Positions 2,948 to 45,095 of a DNA stretch of 64,000 nt are shown piece after piece. Every line of letters begins with the position of its first letter. Within the stretch, counting starts at the first letter, position 1. The DNA is from Psychrobacter sp. P11F6. GTDB lineage: Bacteria; Pseudomonadota; Gammaproteobacteria; Pseudomonadales; Moraxellaceae. The stretch lies in the NCBI RefSeq assembly GCF_001435295.1, contig NZ_CM003594.1, positions 3,120,574-3,184,573 on the forward strand, in the 5' to 3' direction. A program made the translations under genes and the position numbers. The notes beneath the pieces were generated by a model. It was not told where the DNA came from and did no database searches. It saw only the letters and a list, made by a program, of their open reading frames with translations.

Positions 2948-3997
2948 TTAATGACTCAGCGTAGCAGTGGAGCGTGTTACAGGTGTAAAATCTAACAATG
3001 CAGCCTCTTTGTCAGTCATCAAATAACTGTCACTATGTAATAACGACGTCGAGTGATAAGGCACTAAAGCGGTGGGTACGAAGCGACGAGCGGCATCGAT
3101 ATGTTTGATAGAATCATCAAAAAAGATATGAGGTGCAAATGTTCTAAGCACAGCTGTTTTTTCTAAACCTCCTAAGAAAAACGCCATATCAACATTGACG
3201 CCCCACTCTCGCAATGTCTTAATCGCACGCAGATCAGCGGGTGCGTTGCGAGCTGTCACCAATGCAATCTTTATTGGAGAATACTTGAGACCAGCGGGTA
3301 GACGTTCCTGTAAATTTGATAGTTTAATCAACAATTCAGCATAAGGGCCTTTTTCAATGGGTAAATCACGCATCTGTATTTCGCGATCGTGAAAAGCACG
3401 CAGTCCCTTTTGCTTGTACAGCAGTTCACCTGAATCATCAAACAGTACCGCATCACCATCAAAAGCAATACGTAGCTGATCAGTATCTAACTCATAGGTA
3501 TTGACAGGGGTTGCATCGAGTATCGCACAAGCGCAGATATTGGCATCAGCCACTTGCTGGGCATCTTCGCGATTGGTAGTCAAAAATAGATCGACGTTGA
3601 AGTCTTTAATATAAGGAGCAACAGGACTGCCTGAAATAAATGCCGAGCGCGAGATAGTCAGCTCATGTTCAAGAATTGCATTGAGGACTTGAATGCCCGT
3701 ATCTGGACTACTCTTTGAAACAATGACCACTTCCACCAAAGGTGTCTCAATCTCTAAATCTTGCATACCATCATTGCAATAATTATTCAGATTTAATAGA
3801 GCTTTAATTAATGGATAACCAGCACCAAGACTCAGAGCATCGTTTTCACGCTTGGTCATATAATCTCGAAACTCTTTTATGGCGCTTACAGGTCTCTGCT
3901 CTAGCAGCTCTAGCAAATAATTTTCTGATTCTGTTAAATCAAAAAGTGCCGTTGCAGAAATCGCGACGATGAGCGTATTACTAAAATCGACTGCCAT
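2948..3997 (-). CDS. 5'-nucleotidase (PF06189-type, cytosolic)
   Basis: The 349-residue protein resembles the bacterial 5'-nucleotidase family related to eukaryotic cytosolic 5'-nucleotidase I, which dephosphorylates nucleoside monophosphates. Visible hallmarks are the N-terminal block NTLIVAISATALFDL with the conserved ALFDL element, the central IAFDGDAVLFDD segment typical of the HAD-like phosphotransfer core, and FFLGGLEK and IFFDDS blocks near the C-terminus. No signal peptide is present, so it should act in the cytoplasm. It is probably involved in nucleotide salvage or pool control. The ribosome site is weak (AGAGA). Family confidence is good; the preferred nucleotide is unknown. Confidence 0.85.
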   Translation of the reverse strand: MAVDFSNTLIVAISATALFDLTESENYLLELLEQRPVSAIKEFRDYMTKRENDALSLGAGYPLIKALLNLNNYCNDGMQDLEIETPLVEVVIVSKSSPDTGIQVLNAILEHELTISRSAFISGSPVAPYIKDFNVDLFLTTNREDAQQVADANICACAILDATPVNTYELDTDQLRIAFDGDAVLFDDSGELLYKQKGLRAFHDREIQMRDLPIEKGPYAELLIKLSNLQERLPAGLKYSPIKIALVTARNAPADLRAIKTLREWGVNVDMAFFLGGLEKTAVLRTFAPHIFFDDSIKHIDAARRFVPTALVPYHSTSLLHSDSYLMTDKEAALLDFTPVTRSTATLSH

Positions 3998-4333
3998 GAT
4001 TTTCTCTACTTATAAAATTATCTATTCGGAAATGCCAACCAGTTTACTACATTCACAAGCCCTTAGAATGATAAGAAAAGTTATCCACGTATAATGTCAT
4101 TTAGTATAAAAACCACCTTCTAAGTAATCTAAATGACCGCTCAAAAAATGTCTCATAATGTGACTTTATGTGGAATAATTTAACCATAGAATTATTACGC
4201 CGACTTTTTCTTTTATCATAAAAAAACCATATTGCTATGAAAACAATATGGCCCTATTAATGAACAATACAGATGAACAGTGTAGATGAATGACGCAGCT
4301 ATGATTTTCTAAGCTTACTTTTATCAATAGCGC
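3998..4333. other. Intergenic region upstream of the nucleotidase and downstream of dctM
   Basis: The 336 bases hold the predicted terminator of the TRAP transporter operon (4220-4251) and the promoter region of the nucleotidase gene. The rest is AT-rich with no coding character. Confidence 0.6.
4220..4251 (-). terminator. Rho-independent terminator of the TRAP transporter operon
   Basis: Read on the minus strand, arms CCATATTG and CAATATGG enclose a nine-base loop and are followed by seven T residues. It lies about 80 bases past the dctM stop. Confidence 0.8.
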
Positions 4334-5623
4334 TTACGTTAGCAGCACTAAAGATATCGCTGGAAAGGCGACCAAAATAACCAGTCGAATCAGATCAGAG
4401 ACAATAAATGGTGCGACCCCGCGGAACATATCAGACAGCTTAATATGCGGTGCCATTGCCTTAATCACAAAGATATTCATCCCCATCGGCGGCGTAATCA
4501 GTCCAAGCTCTACTGTCAATACAGCGATGATACCAAACCATACGGGATCAAACCCTAACGCCACAATGATTGGATATACCACTGGAATGGTAATGACCAG
4601 CATCGCCAAAGCATCCATGAACAACCCTAATAGGAAGTACATGATTAAGATACAGATCAGTACAATCATCGGGCTAACTGCTAATGTACCAATCCAAGTC
4701 GCTAGCGTATAAGACAAGCGTGAAACGGAGATAAAGTAACCCAAGGCTTCTGCACCCAGCAGCATAAAGAACACCACCGCTGATAATGCAAGCGTTTCAA
4801 TCAAAGATTGCTTTAGACCTTTTATACGCATGCCTTTGGCAAAAGCATAAGCCCAAGAAAAAAACGCACCGACTGCCGCTCCTTCTGTCGGAGTAAATAA
4901 CCCAAAGAAAATACCAGCGATAATCACAATGAAAATAAAGCTAAATGGTATAAGTCCCGTCAATGACAGCAGCTTGGCTTTCCAAGAAGTAGGCTCACCG
5001 CGACGCGCTAAATGGGGCTTCCAGCGTACCATAATCATAACAGTGATTGAATACATCACCATGCCCAAAATCCCAGGCAAGAAACCAGCGATGAACATGT
5101 CACCGACTGACTGCTGGGTTAAGATGGCATAAACCAGTAGCGCAATGCTAGGCGGAATCATAATACCTAACGTGCCACCCGCTGCTAAAATACCACAGGC
5201 AAAACCTGGTTGATAACCATATTTCTCCATTTGTGGCAGCGCAACCTTGGTCATAGTGGACGCTGTGGCTAGGGATGAGCCTGAGATAGAAGCAAAAATA
5301 CCAGACGATCCTATGCCAGCGATACCCAAACTGCCCCTCACTCCCCCAAAAATAGTTCGGGTAGCTTCAAACAATTTCCCTGCCATCCCTGAATGAGTGG
5401 CAAAAACTCCCATTAAAATAAATAAAGGAATCGCACTAAAGTCATACTTTGCCAAGACATCGACTGGAATGTCTTTGAGCATTTGCAGTGCACCACTGGG
5501 CGCCGTCACTGCGCCAAAGCCAACCAATCCAACACCTAACATGGCAAGCGCCACTGGAACTCGCAGGACAACAAGCAGGATCATGACGATTAAGCCGATA
5601 GCTCCAATAATTTCTGGACTCAT
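4334..5623 (-). CDS. dctM: TRAP transporter large permease, DctM subunit
   Basis: DctM is the large membrane subunit of tripartite ATP-independent periplasmic transporters and moves the substrate across the inner membrane using a sodium gradient. The 429-residue protein is almost entirely hydrophobic with about a dozen membrane segments. It has the characteristic DctM blocks: GxxFATHSGMAGKLF, the GSSLATASTMTKVALPQM region near residues 115-132, GTLGIMIPPSIALL, and PPMGMNIFVIK near the C-terminus. The start codon overlaps the dctQ stop by four bases (ATGA) and is preceded by GAGGAGA, so translation is probably coupled. A terminator follows. Confidence 0.95.
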   Translation of the reverse strand: MSPEIIGAIGLIVMILLVVLRVPVALAMLGVGLVGFGAVTAPSGALQMLKDIPVDVLAKYDFSAIPLFILMGVFATHSGMAGKLFEATRTIFGGVRGSLGIAGIGSSGIFASISGSSLATASTMTKVALPQMEKYGYQPGFACGILAAGGTLGIMIPPSIALLVYAILTQQSVGDMFIAGFLPGILGMVMYSITVMIMVRWKPHLARRGEPTSWKAKLLSLTGLIPFSFIFIVIIAGIFFGLFTPTEGAAVGAFFSWAYAFAKGMRIKGLKQSLIETLALSAVVFFMLLGAEALGYFISVSRLSYTLATWIGTLAVSPMIVLICILIMYFLLGLFMDALAMLVITIPVVYPIIVALGFDPVWFGIIAVLTVELGLITPPMGMNIFVIKAMAPHIKLSDMFRGVAPFIVSDLIRLVILVAFPAISLVLLT

Positions 5624-6147
5624 GCGCCTGTCTCCTCGGCGTCAAAGAACTCGCCCGTTTTAAAGATATTGATGGATTCGATTAATGAGCGAATGGCGAG
5701 TAAGAGACTTAAAAATGCACTAAATGCATAGATGGGCATCATTGACAATCTAAGATCTTGAGTGACTTTGCCGTATTCTATGGCATCAACAGCACTCTCA
5801 TAAAGCCCCCAAGCAAAAACGATACCAATGACGAAAAAGCCCATCATAAAGACGCCCATCATATAACCTTTAATGGCTTGCGGCATTTTTTGGGTAAAGA
5901 CATCAACGATGATTTGTGAGCGTTCGACGAAAGCGCCAAAGGCAGCAAGTAAAGCAAAGAGCATGAAGTAAGAAACGATCTCTACACTGCCTTTAACGGT
6001 AAAGCCAAACTCACCACCAGTCAGCTTAAAAATATAACGAGCAGTCACATCGAGCATCGTTGTGAGGACAATAATAATAAGACTGATACCACCGATAAAC
6101 TGGCATAATCTAGAGATTAGAATACTGATTTTTACTAAAAATGCCAT
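5620..6147 (-). CDS. dctQ: TRAP transporter small permease, DctQ subunit
   Basis: This 175-residue protein has four predicted membrane segments, the size and layout of DctQ. The segment FVERSQIIVDVFTQKMP between the second and third helices fits the family. DctQ pairs with DctM and is needed for transport, though it is not the channel itself. The gene lies 17 bases after dctP, has a strong GGAGG site, and overlaps dctM by four bases. The three genes form a complete TRAP operon on the minus strand. Confidence 0.93.
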   Translation of the reverse strand: MAFLVKISILISRLCQFIGGISLIIIVLTTMLDVTARYIFKLTGGEFGFTVKGSVEIVSYFMLFALLAAFGAFVERSQIIVDVFTQKMPQAIKGYMMGVFMMGFFVIGIVFAWGLYESAVDAIEYGKVTQDLRLSMMPIYAFSAFLSLLLAIRSLIESINIFKTGEFFDAEETGA

Positions 6148-39765: not shown

Positions 39766-40722
39766 ATGGATAAGAGAGCAAGTATTCAGTGGTTCCCTGG
39801 GCACATGAACAAAGCCCGTAACGAAATCAAAGAAATCATGCCGCAGATGGATTTGGTCATCGAGGTGATCGATGCGCGTATCCCATATAGTAGTGAAAAC
39901 CCAATGGTCGCGGCATTGCGCGGCGAAAAACCCGTCATCAAAATTCTGAACAAAGCCGACCTTGCTGATCCTGAATTGACCCAAGCGTGGATGGACTATC
40001 TTGAGCAGCAAAGCGGTGTGAAAGCCATTGCTTGCGATACTGATAAAGCCAATGATGTCAAACGTATCATAGCCATCTGTAAACAACTTGTGCCCAATAA
40101 AGTGGGTACGGGTCGCCAAATTAAAGCCATGATTATGGGAATTCCAAACGTCGGTAAATCGACGTTGATTAATACCTTGGCTGGACGCGCCGTAGCAAGA
40201 ACTGGCGATGAGCCAGCAGTTACTAAGTCGCAGCAGTTGATTAAACTTGATGATGACATCATGCTTTATGACACGCCCGGTATGTTATGGCCAAAAGTCG
40301 AAAACGAAAACTCTGGCTATCGTCTGGCAGCGACGGGTGGTATTCGTGATACGGCTTTTGACTTCGCTGATGTCGCCAGCTATACCGCTGAATACTTGAT
40401 GCAAGCCTACCCTGAGCTGCTAAAAACCCGCTATAAAATTGAAGCACTACCAAAGACTGATTGGGAGTTTTTTGAAGTCGCTGGACGCAATCGCGGCTGT
40501 GTACGTTCGGGCAATCAAGTCGATACCTACCGCATGTCTGAGATTTTGATCAACGAGTTACGTAGCGCTAAGCTTGGGCGTATTACGCTTGAGACGCCAG
40601 CCATGTCTGAAGCTGAAGAACTCGTCGTCGCTGAGCAACGCTTAGCAGCAGAAGAAAAAAGAATCGCTAAAGAAGAAGAAAAGCGCTTACGTCGTTTGAA
40701 AACGCGGAAGAATCGGAAGTAG
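39766..40722 (+). CDS. ylqF: Ribosome biogenesis GTPase YlqF/RbgA
   Basis: YlqF-type GTPases act in late assembly of the large ribosomal subunit. The G motifs are circularly permuted as expected: G4 NKAD at residues 62-65 comes before G1 GIPNVGKST (about 125-133) and G3 DTPG (169-172). The opening IQWFPGHMNKA is a hallmark of the family. The C-terminus is a Glu/Arg/Lys-rich helical tail ending RRLKTRKNRK. A broken second copy of its 3' part (bases corresponding to 40430-40722, minus 98 internal bases) lies at 42571-42765 on the far side of the 459-residue cargo gene, so the 3' end of this gene marks one boundary of the rearrangement. Confidence 0.96.
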   Translation: MDKRASIQWFPGHMNKARNEIKEIMPQMDLVIEVIDARIPYSSENPMVAALRGEKPVIKILNKADLADPELTQAWMDYLEQQSGVKAIACDTDKANDVKRIIAICKQLVPNKVGTGRQIKAMIMGIPNVGKSTLINTLAGRAVARTGDEPAVTKSQQLIKLDDDIMLYDTPGMLWPKVENENSGYRLAATGGIRDTAFDFADVASYTAEYLMQAYPELLKTRYKIEALPKTDWEFFEVAGRNRGCVRSGNQVDTYRMSEILINELRSAKLGRITLETPAMSEAEELVVAEQRLAAEEKRIAKEEEKRLRRLKTRKNRK

Positions 40723-40859
40723 GTTGAGAAGTAGTTAATTCTATTTTTCAATTATAGTTAGAATCTTATATGATACATAACCTAGCACATGAGCATTTTT
40801 TAGAGTTCATAAGATAAAATTTAGATAATAGTCAACAGTAATTATATTAAGAGCAAATT

Positions 40860-42239
40860 ATGAGAGATTCCTTAGTAGCGATTGCAGATGAGGTGAAACA
40901 TTTAACAGATTCAGATATCGAAGAGTTGTATCAACGATATCTGAATGGTGAAAAAAATTCTGCTTTGATAGCTGACTATGAAATCGATATTAACCCTAAT
41001 AAACTGATTAAAGTACTACCTCCTCAGCAGTTACTTGATACTGTATGCCCATACTGTCAAATCCCAATGTATGTAAAGCGTAAAAGTAAGAGCCACAGTT
41101 CTTGGAAGAACAATCCTATCGAATGTTATAAATGTGCCCATAAAATTTTTGCTAGTAGTAATAGTTGCTACCAAGAATACTGCGAATGCAGCAAATGTTT
41201 AGATTTAAAAAGACAGAAAGCTATTGACGATGTAAATAAAAAAAGAGAAATTATTGCAGAATCACACTGCTTGCAAAAATTCTCTCCCATAGATTATGAG
41301 TGTTTAACCTTTACTGAAAAACTAATATTACTAACTTTATTTAGGATCCAAACTGATGAAGACTTTGGTCATATCCTATCTTTAGATAATCCATTAAGAA
41401 TAAGACTATTTACACCATCTAGTTCTATGGATGAAGGTTATATTGACAGACTATATCGTTCAAATATTTTGTTGATAGATCCTCTTTCTTCAATTGATGC
41501 TTTTCCAGATGAAAATCCAGCTAAAAGTTATTACCAAAGAAAAGTCCAATGGATAGTTAATGTGTCACTTGATGGTGAAAATCGCAATCAATTAAGTGAA
41601 ATTTATAATAAGATTTATTTTGATATAAAAAATGATATTACGCCAGAATGGGAAAATGAACTATTTGAGCTTCTCCTGAAAATTAGTGTTGAAGAAGTAT
41701 TACAGTATTTGTATATAAAAATTGAAGAACTAAACGTAATTTTCGTTGCTGAGAAGAAGACCAGAGAGATAACAGAACAGTTATTAATAGATTTCTCAGT
41801 AAGCGAAATCTATTATTTCGTAAAAAAGGCAGTTGAAGATGCTCATATTTTCTATACTAAGGGATTTGCAAGTAGTAGAAAACATGCAGGGAATATCATT
41901 CCTGGAAAAATGTTGTCTTTAGGTGAAAGAGCGTTAAAAGAAAATTGGGAAACTTATAAATATAATCGCGATTCAAGGGCTCCTCGTTCCTATTTAAGTC
42001 AGATGGTTTTTGACTTCCTTTTAAATGGTGAGGACGCTGGGTTTAATAAAGCTATAGGTAAGTACTGGGAACAAGAAATTTCTCCTAAATATTTTCCTAC
42101 TAATGAGAGTAACAAAGAAAATAATTTATATTGCATAAAATGTAACTCTAAAAACGTTCAAATTAACATGATTGACTCTAAGCTGTCGCTCGACTGCAAA
42201 GACTGTGGATTCAAAAAGGGTTATACGTCTGAAAACTAG
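40860..42239 (+). CDS. Unknown 459-aa protein with terminal zinc-ribbon-like cysteine pairs (accessory gene)
   Basis: I recognise no family. The N-terminal part has C63-x2-C66 and C89-x2-C92, resembling a zinc ribbon, then C103, C108, C110 and C113. The C-terminus has C425-x2-C428 and C446-x2-C449, a second ribbon. The middle 280 residues are helical-looking, rich in Ile, Glu, Lys and Tyr, without signal peptide or membrane segments. Base composition is clearly more AT-rich than the neighbours, and the gene lies between intact ylqF and the mutY/ylqF scar, so transfer from elsewhere is likely. AAGAGC precedes the start. The double-ribbon design fits nucleic-acid binding or a large enzyme; a defence role is possible but unproven. 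Confidence 0.8.
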   Translation: MRDSLVAIADEVKHLTDSDIEELYQRYLNGEKNSALIADYEIDINPNKLIKVLPPQQLLDTVCPYCQIPMYVKRKSKSHSSWKNNPIECYKCAHKIFASSNSCYQEYCECSKCLDLKRQKAIDDVNKKREIIAESHCLQKFSPIDYECLTFTEKLILLTLFRIQTDEDFGHILSLDNPLRIRLFTPSSSMDEGYIDRLYRSNILLIDPLSSIDAFPDENPAKSYYQRKVQWIVNVSLDGENRNQLSEIYNKIYFDIKNDITPEWENELFELLLKISVEEVLQYLYIKIEELNVIFVAEKKTREITEQLLIDFSVSEIYYFVKKAVEDAHIFYTKGFASSRKHAGNIIPGKMLSLGERALKENWETYKYNRDSRAPRSYLSQMVFDFLLNGEDAGFNKAIGKYWEQEISPKYFPTNESNKENNLYCIKCNSKNVQINMIDSKLSLDCKDCGFKKGYTSEN

Positions 42240-42310
42240 AGATAACTTATTTTTAGCTTTATTATTGTACTTATTTATATAAGTTATATGAATCATACTA
42301 ATATTCCTTT

Positions 42311-42570
42311 ATGACTAAGATAGCTGCTAACTCAGAGATACATCTCAAAGATAAACCTTCCAACCATATTGAAACCGAGCTAAACTGCTTCGCACCACGC
42401 TTACTAGATTGGTTTGCCAAAAACGGTCGCCATGATTTGCCTTGGAAGCAGCACCAAACCGACGCGCCCAATCCTTATATCGTCTGGCTATTCGAAGTTA
42501 TGCTACAGCAAACGCAGGTGGCTACTTTGCGCGTTTTATGGCGTCGTTTCCGACCGTGCAAGATCTAGCA
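42311..42570 (+). pseudogene. Truncated 5' fragment of a second mutY copy
   Basis: From about 42384 the sequence matches the 5' part of mutY at 43809 ([19 protein letters not shown], then QQTQV), with roughly 15 mismatches over the best 130 bases, most at synonymous sites. A deletion of about 13 bases near 42520 shifts the frame, and homology stops at about 42570 in the codons for FPTVQDLAA. The first 24 codons differ from resident mutY. It keeps an ATG start but cannot make a functional glycosylase. It joins directly to a ylqF 3' fragment. Confidence 0.9.
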
Positions 42571-42765
42571 GCTATAAAATTGAAAAATTACCTAAGACTG
42601 ATTGGGAGTTTTTTGAAGTCGCTGGACGCAATCGCAGCTGTGTACGTTCGGGCAATCAAGTCGATACGTACCGCATGTCTGAGATTTCGATCAACGAGTT
42701 ACGTAGCGCTAAGCTTGGGCGTATTACGCTTACGTCGTTTGAAAACGCGGAAGAATCGGAAGTAA
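42571..42765 (+). pseudogene. Truncated 3' fragment of a second ylqF copy
   Basis: The sequence matches ylqF from base 40430 to its stop with few mismatches, but lacks 40591-40688 (98 bases). The missing part is bounded by the 5-bp direct repeat CGCTT in ylqF, a typical deletion footprint. The deletion shifts the frame. The junction with the mutY fragment has only two shared bases (GC), pointing to illegitimate joining. Confidence 0.92.
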
Positions 42766-42823
42766 ATCGACAACCCTTTGTGTCTATAATGTTAGCTGTA
42801 TAAAATTATTTTAGAGCTCATGC

Positions 42824-42848
42824 AAAAAAAGCCCATAAGGGCTTTTTT
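42824..42848. terminator. Bidirectional terminator
   Basis: AAAAAAAGCCC and GGGCTTTTTT enclose a four-base loop between the scar and the convergent haem-binding-like gene. Confidence 0.9.
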
Positions 42849-42919
42849 TATGTTTACTGCTAACGATATCGAAGTTATTTGATGATATCTAAATCATTTA
42901 GCAATATCTAAGCCATCAA

Positions 42920-43435
42920 CTACTTCTGTTTAGGCATGACTTTTTCGATAGCTTTCAACGCACAAGCTTCATCTTGTACTGCACCGCCTGCGCCGCCCGC
43001 TGCAATAGCGCCGATCACATCATTACCAAACTTTAACGGCACACCGCCGCCGATCAGCAGTAAATCATTTACCGTATTCAAGTTATTTGAGTCTGGATTA
43101 GCGCGAGCATTATCCGCCAACGTACGTGAAGGCGTTTTGGTAGATAATGCCGTGAATGCTTTGCGGACAGCAGCATCAGTATTGTGCGGACCAACGTTAT
43201 CATCGCGCTGTAGCGCGATTAAATTGCCAGCACGATCAACAACCGCGACCACGGCGGATTTGCCCTCTGCGTGACAGGCTGCCATGGTGGCATCGATTAA
43301 TTCATTGGCCAACTCTAAAGAAACATTGGGCTGTTGTAATACTAGATTTGGTTTGGCGGCCAAAACGTTGGCTGAACAGCCGATGACTGCTAGTGCCAAT
43401 AATGCTTTAGATAAGTAGTTCGACATTAACTTCAT
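42920..43435 (-). CDS. Secreted GlcG/HbpS-like haem-binding family protein
   Basis: The 171-residue protein begins with a clear signal peptide (about residues 1-27, cleavage near VLA-AK) and continues with a GlcG/HbpS domain (PF03928 type). Family blocks are LANELIDATMAACHAEGKSAVVAVVD in part, GNLIALQRDD, and IGGGVPLKFGNDVIGAIAAGGAGG near the C-terminus. Members bind haem or small molecules; periplasmic forms like this are common in proteobacteria, with unclear roles. TTAGGAC precedes the start. It is divergent from mutY and lies in the segment between the ylqF scar and intact mutY. Confidence 0.88.
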   Translation of the reverse strand: MKLMSNYLSKALLALAVIGCSANVLAAKPNLVLQQPNVSLELANELIDATMAACHAEGKSAVVAVVDRAGNLIALQRDDNVGPHNTDAAVRKAFTALSTKTPSRTLADNARANPDSNNLNTVNDLLLIGGGVPLKFGNDVIGAIAAGGAGGAVQDEACALKAIEKVMPKQK

Positions 43436-43808
43436 AAAGAGTCCTAAATATTACTCATACATGTGAGCGTTTGTTTGAAATGATGCTTAGTGAGCTTTAA
43501 TAAGCGTATTTGATGAAACCAGACAATGAGTTATCGTTAACTCAAAGGTGCTCTTGCGGCCCTAGCGAGAATAAGAGTCATAATCTTGCAAAAAGCACAA
43601 CAATGATAAGTTAATTTTTCTACAAAATTCACTTAATTTTGTAAGATTTACTTTATAAATTTGCAACTCTATATTAAGTTTTCTGTTACATACTCTGTTT
43701 TTCAACACTCACACTCAAAAAACGCTTACATCGTGGTAATCTCAAAAAGCGCACAACAGTGATATCAACTCACTTCTTTCGAAAATCGGTTATAATTCAT
43801 ACACTAAT
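43436..43808. other. Divergent promoter region of the GlcG-like gene and mutY
   Basis: A perfect TATAAT sits at 43791-43796, only 12 bases before the mutY ATG, which would leave a very short leader. No other feature is seen in these 373 bases. Confidence 0.45.
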
Positions 43809-45095
43809 ATGCCAAAAATTGATGATATGACTCAGCTTACCCCCACTGCAAACCTCACAACGATAGAAAACACTTTTACTCAATACTTTACTTCTCTCGA
43901 TTCGTTCGCCCCGCGCCTACTCGATTGGTTCGCCGAAAACGGTCGCCATGACCTACCTTGGCAGCAGCACCAAACCGACGCGCCCAATCCTTATATCGTT
44001 TGGCTATCCGAAGTCATGCTACAGCAGACGCAAGTAACGACGGTGCTGCCCTATTTTGCCCGTTTTATGGCATCGTTTCCAACGGTACAAGATTTAGCAG
44101 CCGCAGAATGGGACACGGTAGCAGAGCATTGGGCAGGACTTGGCTATTATGCGCGCGCGCGTAATTTGCATAAAGGCGCGAAACAACTGGTCGAAGTCAT
44201 TGATGAGACGGGCGACTTTCCGCAGACGCTAGCAGGGTGGGAAGCCATCTCTGGCGTCGGGCCATCGACCGCTGGCGCGATTATGGCGATGGGCTTACAT
44301 CGTTATGGCGTCATTTGTGATGGCAATGTCAAACGTGTCTTGACGCGTTGGGCAGCGATTGATAGTGATATTACCAAGTCTGCCACCACCAAAGTGCTAT
44401 GGGCATTGGCAGAGCGTTTAACGCCTGTCGATGACTCAGGATTGTTCGCGCAAGCGATGATGGATATGGGCGCGACGTTATGCACGCGTAGCAAACCTGC
44501 CTGCCTATTATGTCCCCTTCAAGAGGACTGCCTAGCCCACGAGCAAGGACGCGAAACAGATTATCCAGTCAAAGCAAAAAAGCAGCCTAAACCTAGCAAG
44601 TTTAGCAATGCGTTATTGATTGAAGATATTGATGGAAAAATACTGTGGCTACAACGCCCTGACAATGGCATTTGGGGCGGACTGTGGAGTTTGCCTTTAC
44701 AGTTTGTTGAAAAAACCGCAGGTAAAATGAATACTAAAACTGCCGCAGAAAAAATGACTAAAATTGACGATACAGTATTAAAAGTGACCAGTAATGAAAA
44801 AGTATATGAAGCAGAATTTACCACTGCCGAGCAAATTATCAACGAGTGGTTAGATAAGCATAAATTGACAGCAAAAGCAGTCAGTAAAAATTTATTAGAC
44901 GACGTCCCTATTAAGCATTCACTGACCCATTTTCATTGGTATCTAACACCGCAATCAGTCACTTTAAATGCTAAGCAAGTGGCTGAAATAACCGAAGCCT
45001 TAGAAGCAGCACAAATTAATATTAATTGGCTAAATGCTGTTGATGCTCAGGCAACACTTGGATTGCCACGAGCAATGGTTAAGATTTTAGAATAA
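43809..45095 (+). CDS. mutY: A/G-specific adenine glycosylase
   Basis: MutY removes adenine mispaired with 8-oxoguanine. The 428-residue protein has all key parts: Glu68 in [10 protein letters not shown], the helix-hairpin-helix ISGVGPSTAGAIM, catalytic Asp171 in GVICDGNVKR, the iron-sulphur cluster Cys225-x6-Cys232-x2-Cys235-x5-Cys241, and a C-terminal NUDIX-like domain that reads the 8-oxoG strand. The C-terminal domain is longer than usual because of a Lys/Thr-rich insert at about residues 300-350. The start could also be Met7; a -10 box only 12 bases upstream of Met1 would fit a later start or a leaderless message. A broken 5' copy lies at 42311. Confidence 0.96.
   Translation: MPKIDDMTQLTPTANLTTIENTFTQYFTSLDSFAPRLLDWFAENGRHDLPWQQHQTDAPNPYIVWLSEVMLQQTQVTTVLPYFARFMASFPTVQDLAAAEWDTVAEHWAGLGYYARARNLHKGAKQLVEVIDETGDFPQTLAGWEAISGVGPSTAGAIMAMGLHRYGVICDGNVKRVLTRWAAIDSDITKSATTKVLWALAERLTPVDDSGLFAQAMMDMGATLCTRSKPACLLCPLQEDCLAHEQGRETDYPVKAKKQPKPSKFSNALLIEDIDGKILWLQRPDNGIWGGLWSLPLQFVEKTAGKMNTKTAAEKMTKIDDTVLKVTSNEKVYEAEFTTAEQIINEWLDKHKLTAKAVSKNLLDDVPIKHSLTHFHWYLTPQSVTLNAKQVAEITEALEAAQININWLNAVDAQATLGLPRAMVKILE

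What the first reader, a model, noticed from the sequence alone, without database searches (positions are those of the whole stretch)
40430..45095. mutY/ylqF chimeric scar marks capture of an accessory gene between ylqF and mutY
Seen: after intact ylqF and a 459-residue AT-rich gene comes a 5' fragment of mutY (to about 42570) joined to a 3' fragment of ylqF (42571-42765), then a GlcG-like gene and intact mutY. A fused mutY-5'/ylqF-3' junction is the signature of a tandem duplication of the ylqF-to-mutY interval, with different cargo in each copy. The mutY fragment differs from resident mutY at roughly 15 of 130 bases, mostly third positions, so it diverged as a working gene before being broken. 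That favours DNA from a related strain or species, integrated by homology at ylqF on one side and illegitimate joining (shared GC only) on the other, as described for naturally transformable Acinetobacter. The locus may be a repeated landing site for accessory genes.
Basis: partly seen in the sequence, partly recalled or inferred. Interest (0 to 1): 0.72.

Follow-up and report, generated by a model that had tools for sequence, protein, structure and literature searches.

The report
Scarred gene-capture hotspot in Psychrobacter
Between two housekeeping genes of this cold-loving bacterium sits a spot where many different accessory genes come and go, and in this genome one arrival left a broken two-gene scar that records how foreign DNA was probably spliced in.

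Summary
Observation confirmed. The window reads ylqF, a 459-codon AT-rich gene (P0001), a mutY 5' fragment fused at a 2-bp overlap (GC, 42571-42572) to a ylqF 3' fragment, a GlcG/HbpS-like gene, and intact mutY. Two internal deletions (13 and 98 nt) were missed. In 81 loci analysed (genus Psychrobacter) the ylqF-mutY interval is a hotspot with 16 cargo modules; neighbouring intervals vary far less. In the window's ylqF clade 12 of 14 loci carry glcG; five of those have an extra cassette between ylqF and glcG, with four different joints, three other genomes also keeping ylqF 3' fragments. Simple ylqF-cassette-mutY layouts exist for two of the four events. The mutY fragment's differences are mostly alleles of working mutY genes (2 of 32 private, 19.4 expected at random); the ylqF fragment looks native. 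This fits insertion anchored by homology at ylqF with illegitimate joining on the other side. The anchor side, transformation as route and the donor are inferred or unresolved. The kind of hotspot is known (Oliveira 2017) and such joining has been proposed for Vibrio arrays. Cargo of 38 of 81 loci belongs to clusters whose representative matches defence models; some distant P0001 relatives lie beside defence systems.

The parts
39766..40722 (+). intact ylqF (ribosome biogenesis GTPase YlqF), left core flank and presumed homologous anchor
   Evidence: TIGR03596 E 2.6e-105; open frame
40860..42239 (+). P0001, 459-aa AT-rich cargo gene of an uncharacterised family; cysteine pairs near both ends
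   Evidence: open frame; no family above cut-off in Pfam and NCBIfam, none at all in PADLOC and PHROGs; one 54% relative among 104 other genus genomes, elsewhere in that genome
42308..42572 (+). 5' fragment of a mutY gene (ATG at 42311), with a 13-nt deletion near 42522-42530
42571..42572 (.). 2-bp overlap (GC) at the mutY|ylqF illegitimate joint
42571..42765 (+). 3' fragment of ylqF from codon 222 to the stop, with a 98-nt deletion at a CGCTT repeat (42727-42731)
42766..42919 (.). spacer shared with ylqF-glcG-mutY relatives (recipient-side sequence)
   Evidence: alignment; positions 3326-5900 of the window slice match L046 at 95%
42920..43435 (-). GlcG/HbpS-like gene, resident cassette of this clade
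   Evidence: PF03928 E 3.2e-32; in 12 of 14 clade loci
43809..45095 (+). intact mutY, right core flank
   Evidence: TIGR01084 E 3e-100

Best explanation
The ylqF-mutY interval of Psychrobacter is a cassette-exchange hotspot. Usually a whole cassette is swapped by recombination in the two flanking core genes. In the window lineage an incoming DNA piece, ylqF(3')-P0001-mutY(5'), from a related strain or species was instead added: it paired with resident ylqF by homology, and its other end, inside mutY, was joined illegitimately at GC to resident ylqF codon 222. This left intact ylqF, the new gene, a mutY5'/ylqF3' scar, and the older glcG cassette with intact mutY. The scar then decayed by small deletions. 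Shown: anatomy, hotspot, recipient layout, allele make-up of the pieces, other additions with different joints. Inferred: ylqF as the anchor, natural transformation as the route, and P0001 being defence-related.
For: Hotspot with controls (85 unique loci, each interval counted where both genes were found): gap over 500 bp in 65 of 77 for ylqF-mutY, 1 of 68 for DUF2339-ylqF, 9 of 81 for mutY-tesB, 5 of 73 for tesB-rapA, none of the last over 700. Seven clade loci have ylqF-glcG-mutY only, and the window's ylqF fragment continues into their spacer. Other additions at the same place: G020/G010 (KAP NTPase, ylqF from codon 272), G029 (AAA gene plus N6-MTase/S gene, ylqF from codon 281), G075 (C6 and the DUF6414 gene C7, joint in the spacer after ylqF). 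Nine loci have ylqF-C3-mutY and one has ylqF-C6-C7-mutY, i.e. donor-type layouts. The G020 joint lies in an 11-nt run, GCATCACGTTA, shared by donor-type G041 and recipient-type G004. mutY fragment: 16 in-clade, 14 outside-only and 2 private alleles of 32, whereas six clade members put to the same test had 0-6 outside-only and 0-1 private; random changes would give 19.4 private. ylqF fragment: 8 differences, 3 private, 1 outside-only. mutY 5' ends can travel with the cassette: G008 has clade ylqF but a mutY 5' end grouped with the C2-cassette loci. ComEC and DprA domains are present.
Against: The intact ylqF is clade-like up to its stop in the five stacked loci, so no donor tract proves the anchor. 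The mutY fragment cannot be placed by tree: AU p 0.627 for inside the glcG group, 0.138 for sister to the resident copy. No ylqF-P0001-mutY locus was found: P0001 has one close relative (54%) in 104 other genus genomes and it lies elsewhere. G020 and G010 share a joint although their cargo is only 86% identical, so later recombination has blurred single events. G075 is a draft of 85% completeness with stops inside ylqF and mutY, so its details are less sure. ComEC and DprA domains ring in 10 and 11 of 14 control genomes, E. coli included, so they say little about competence. The 2-bp overlap is no more than chance would give. One related pattern lies on the mutY side (G027/G028).
Confidence: 0.72

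Rival explanations
1. Mirror image: P0001 was resident and the ylqF3'-glcG-mutY piece came second, anchored by homology in mutY and joined illegitimately on its left.
For: It gives the same final order. mutY 5' ends of glcG loci form one group that also holds a species outside the clade, G019. G027/G028 have a 206-bp repeat of the mutY upstream/start region around VapBC, so additions on the mutY side may occur.
Against: glcG is in 12 of 14 clade loci, 7 of them without an extra cassette, while the extra cassettes differ. The ylqF fragment carries mostly clade alleles.
Confidence: 0.12
2. Unequal crossing-over between two chromosomes, or a merodiploid, carrying different cassettes (transformation-induced tandem duplication), followed by deletion.
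For: Same topology. Transformation-driven tandem duplications are documented in pneumococcus (PMC3784515, abstract).
Against: The duplications in that abstract are about 100-900 kb and rest on repeats. Here the joints lie within a few hundred bp and differ between lineages.
Confidence: 0.1
3. Tandem duplication within the window's own lineage, cargo diverging or being replaced later.
For: An AU test does not reject the fragment as sister to resident mutY (p 0.138).
Against: 30 of 32 differences are alleles of other mutY genes. The two cargoes are unrelated genes.
Confidence: 0.03
4. Site-specific integration of a mobile element at the 3' end of ylqF, displacing the old 3' end.
For: Three other genomes also carry displaced ylqF 3' ends.
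Against: The displaced ends start at codons 222, 272 and 281, and in G075 after the stop, so there is no fixed core. The window cassette holds no integrase; one transposase turned up among the interval genes scanned.
Confidence: 0.02

Closest known systems
Integration hotspots without mobile elements, diversified by homologous recombination in flanking core genes (Oliveira et al. 2017, PMC5635113; abstract and passages seen)
   Same: One conserved gene pair, turnover of unrelated cargo, few mobile-element genes, a sign of recombination in a flanking core gene
   Different: That paper proposes double homologous recombination; the word illegitimate does not occur in its held text. Here additive events leave chimeric core-gene scars.
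Homology-facilitated illegitimate recombination (Acinetobacter, Streptococcus pneumoniae, Pseudomonas stutzeri; as described in PMC3240628, passages seen; the Acinetobacter paper itself is not held, the other two were not looked up)
   Same: One homologous side, one illegitimate joint at little or no homology, foreign gene gained
   Different: Here inferred from natural genomes; no experiment, and the homologous side is not proven
Stacked immunity genes at Vibrio cholerae T6SS loci (PMC5361080, passages seen)
   Same: Incoming module anchored on one conserved side pushes the older module downstream and leaves remnants; the authors propose a mechanism akin to the same one
   Different: There the remnants are parts of effector modules; here they are parts of the two housekeeping flank genes, and the cargo is unrelated genes
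Core defence hotspots of Pseudomonas aeruginosa (PMC10250203, abstract seen)
   Same: Defence-type cargo between fixed core genes
   Different: The Psychrobacter site is small (0.1-5 kb; mostly one or two genes) and much of the cargo is at best candidate defence

Membership tests
Recombination-driven integration hotspot | High cargo turnover at one core-gene interval, above neighbouring intervals | tested here: met
Recombination-driven integration hotspot | Few or no integrases or other mobile-element genes | tested here: met
   One IS transposase (G005, locus L082) among 20 representative interval proteins plus those of the window; five of the 20 have no Pfam match
Recombination-driven integration hotspot | Recombination in flanking core genes above the genome background | tested here: inconclusive
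   Cassette-linked mutY 5' end in G008; no genome-wide background measured
Homology-facilitated illegitimate recombination product | Illegitimate joint at one end with short or no homology | tested here: met
   GC in the window; 11-nt run at the G020 joint
Homology-facilitated illegitimate recombination product | Homologous crossover at the other end | tested here: inconclusive
   No donor tract visible in intact ylqF
Homology-facilitated illegitimate recombination product | DNA taken up by natural transformation | not testable with these tools
   ComEC and DprA domains only, which also ring in most control genomes
Site-specific genomic island | Integrase and fixed attachment core | tested here: not met
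Self tandem duplication | Duplicate mutY derived from the resident mutY | tested here: inconclusive
   Allele test against; AU test not rejecting

The most novel reading that the evidence does not exclude
The ylqF-mutY site of Psychrobacter is a small defence-gene hotspot that grows by a one-sided capture ratchet: each additive capture pushes the older cassette towards mutY and leaves a mutY5'/ylqF3' or ylqF3' scar, so the site is a natural fossil record of illegitimate gene capture; and P0001 is a member of an undescribed, mobile, defence-associated protein family.
Probability: 0.35. Interest if true: 0.6.

Novelty: new member of a known kind. Interest (0 to 1): 0.42.

Why it matters
How bacteria add genes that share no homology with them, without mobile elements, is mostly known from laboratory transformation. 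This locus gives natural products with recipient-type and, for two of four events, donor-type layouts still present in other species, so direction, joint sequences and decay can be read and the model tested by transformation in a laboratory strain. It also points to a compact site for finding new phage-defence genes in this genus.

Tried and rejected
Placing the mutY fragment by tree: 201 nt are too few. The free tree left it unresolved and the AU test rejected nothing, so I used an allele test instead. Site-specific integration: rejected, since the joints are not at a fixed core. A self tandem duplication: disfavoured, not excluded by tree. In the scar search I left out: a 37-nt mutY-start match in G060 (E 8e-8; looked at, judged too weak); 25-28-nt mutY-start matches that end at the interval's right edge in L066, L067, L076, L082, L086, L094, L095, L116 and L122, and ylqF-end matches at the left edge in L105, L107, L116-L120 and L122, both of which I read as gene ends set short by my extrapolation, not as scars; and a 35-nt reverse match in L115. 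The 129-aa chimeric frame over the scar has no Pfam match at E 1. PDB by sequence: no match for P0001. P0001 in the 84,980-species collection: no relative confirmed.
Full report
Observation. Repeat finding inside the window and comparison with genus core genes confirm the scar: mutY homology at 42308-42572 and ylqF homology at 42571-42765, overlapping by two bases (GC). The fragments are not clean: 13 nt are missing from the mutY part (frameshift) and 98 nt from the ylqF part, the latter at a CGCTT repeat. ylqF, P0001, the HbpS-like gene and mutY are open frames; all but P0001 match their families. GC content dips to 0.29-0.33 over P0001.

Setting. Named loci fetched with MutY identify the genus as Psychrobacter. 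105 genus genomes were searched with the scar, P0001, MutY and YlqF. I fetched 80 loci and analysed 81 with the window; the 24 others are accounted for under Tried and rejected. Cargo between ylqF and mutY falls into 16 modules by my count of the clusters: a DUF4357 gene with a weak GIY-YIG match (26 loci), glcG/HbpS (14 loci, alone or stacked; broken into frames in G051), KAP NTPase (11), a two-frame module C2 (6), VapBC (5), and rarer ones, one of them an IS transposase; 13 loci have none and L097 holds 775 bp with no frame of 70 aa. On a quick ylqF tree, with L097 left out, the labels change at least 39 (mutY side) or 44 (ylqF side) times over 80 loci.

Controls. With duplicates removed (85 unique loci, each interval counted where both genes were found) the gap exceeds 500 bp in 65 of 77 for ylqF-mutY, 1 of 68 for DUF2339-ylqF, 9 of 81 for mutY-tesB and 5 of 73 for tesB-rapA, the last never over 700 (before deduplication). 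The variability therefore belongs to this interval, with a weaker site on the far side of mutY.

Repeated additions. The window's ylqF clade has 14 loci (SH-aLRT 98). Twelve carry glcG; seven of these have nothing else and five have an extra cassette between ylqF and glcG: the window, G020, G010, G029 and G075. G020 and G010 share a joint (C3-mutY spacer to ylqF codon 272), G029 joins at codon 281, G075 joins after the ylqF stop. So there are four distinct joints. In the four loci with a ylqF fragment it runs into the same AAATCGA spacer as in the glcG-only relatives, which marks fragment+glcG+mutY as recipient DNA. Loci with ylqF-C3-mutY (9 of 81) and ylqF-C6-C7-mutY (1 of 81) show that these cassettes also exist in simple form; G103 matches G075 through C6-C7 at 82%, although the C7 frame of G075 is short (180 against 309 aa) and that genome is a draft with stops inside ylqF and mutY. 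No simple-form locus was found for P0001 or for the G029 cassette. G027 and G028 show a related pattern on the other side: a 206-bp repeat (77%) of the mutY upstream and start region on both sides of VapBC.

Origin of the pieces. Against resident mutY the fragment has 32 differences in 195 columns: 16 are alleles seen among 13 clade loci (G008 left out because its mutY 5' end groups elsewhere), 14 only outside them, 2 in no other sequence. Random changes would give 19.4 of the last kind (0 of 10,000 simulations at or below 2; with the first 15 columns left out 24 differences, 2 private, 15.2 expected). Six clade members put to the same test had 0-6 outside-only and 0-1 private alleles. Hence the fragment diverged as a working gene. 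The ylqF fragment has 8 differences in 162 columns: 4 in-clade, 1 outside-only, 3 private against 4.7 expected, i.e. a clade-like allele in decay. Results against a clearly foreign source: the fragment shares the QTDAPNPY residue seen in 12 clade loci and in no other sequence printed that far, and the AU test does not reject it within the glcG group (p 0.627) or as sister of the resident gene (p 0.138). The donor may thus be a close relative whose interval carried P0001.

Mechanism. The best reading is homology-anchored, one-sided illegitimate insertion, next to ordinary cassette swaps. A swap is visible in G008, whose ylqF is of the clade but whose mutY 5' end groups with the C2-cassette loci and two others. 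The additive step needs one homologous side; ylqF is preferred because in this clade the extra cassette lies next to ylqF in all four events and glcG is the common resident. But the intact ylqF shows no donor tract, so the anchor is inferred. The joint in G020 lies in an 11-nt run shared by donor-type G041 and recipient-type G004; in the window only GC is shared. ComEC and DprA domains are present, but they also ring in 10 and 11 of 14 control genomes, and transformation of this strain is not shown.

Cargo. Twenty representative interval proteins were scanned against Pfam and ten of them against PADLOC. Four of the ten matched: the 26-locus family as PDC-S14, the KAP NTPase (11 loci) as PDC-S20, and G029's two genes as AAA defence proteins and type I methyltransferase/specificity; six had no match. 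By cluster membership that is 38 of 81 loci. PDC entries are candidates by the library's own description, and only representatives were scanned. P0001 itself matches nothing above cut-off. Counting weak matches (E up to 0.001) 25 of 105 genus genomes have a relative; the only close one besides the window is 54% identical and lies elsewhere in G044. Six genomes of other genera hold relatives of 27-36% at E 1e-25 (348 family genomes searched). On plasmids 12 records match, at best 33%, in phage records 2, at 20%. Distant relatives lie beside SIR2-HerA and DUF3584/MksE genes in this same genome, near a SIR2 gene in G084, beside Gabija (L239) and near a type III restriction gene (L238), near a type I restriction gene (L241) and a gene with a weak DrmC match (L237), near BREX genes on an Oceanisphaera plasmid and beside type I restriction genes on a Psychrobacter plasmid. 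Against this: the scanned neighbours in L229, L236 and L240 had no PADLOC match, the two scanned in the 54% relative's locus L228 are a TonB receptor and an aminotransferase, no restriction or BREX gene is annotated around the relatives in L244 and L246-L249, neighbours were hand-picked, L230-L234 and L242 were not scanned, and no background rate was measured. A defence role for P0001 is a lead only.

Literature. Hotspots without mobile elements, with recombination in flanking core genes and more frequent in transformable species, are described (PMC5635113, abstract and passages). One-sided illegitimate insertion is reported in three competent species (PMC3240628, passages) and proposed for natural T6SS arrays (PMC5361080, passages) and for variable segments of E. 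coli (PMC2884548, passages). No held paper contains both ylqF and mutY as whole words. Searches combining Psychrobacter with other terms listed 15 of 21, 10 of 11 and 10 of 193 papers; by title and abstract start none is about this locus. This is absence in one open library and in capped listings only.

Verdict. It is a new, well-documented member of a known kind of hotspot, with unusually legible scars.

Noticed in passing
L243 (own genome, G000:C1:3318300-3331200): A 429-aa distant relative of P0001 sits between a SIR2-HerA pair and DUF3584/MksE-like genes: an uncharacterised gene inside a defence-type cluster of the same genome.
   Followed up: partly
L110:2512-2717 and L110:3483-3687 (G028), likewise G027: 206-bp direct repeat (77%) of the mutY upstream and start region flanking a VapBC pair: a possible scar on the mutY side of the hotspot.
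   Followed up: partly
L203: A record titled Streptomyces cinereus JCM 3040 holds a MutY 60% identical to the Psychrobacter one; the label or assembly looks doubtful.
   Followed up: no
L215 (G020), upstream of ylqF: DUF2339-ylqF gap of 3617 bp, the only one over 500 bp among 68 loci: perhaps another insertion just upstream, or a poor match to the DUF2339 gene.
   Followed up: no
mutY-tesB interval, e.g. L188, L191, L196: Gap over 500 bp in 9 of 81 unique loci: a second, less used site on the other side of mutY.
   Followed up: no
L044 and L049 (G020, G010): Same joint but cargo genes only 86% identical, so the cargo was probably replaced after the scar formed, or the scar itself has moved between species.
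   Followed up: no
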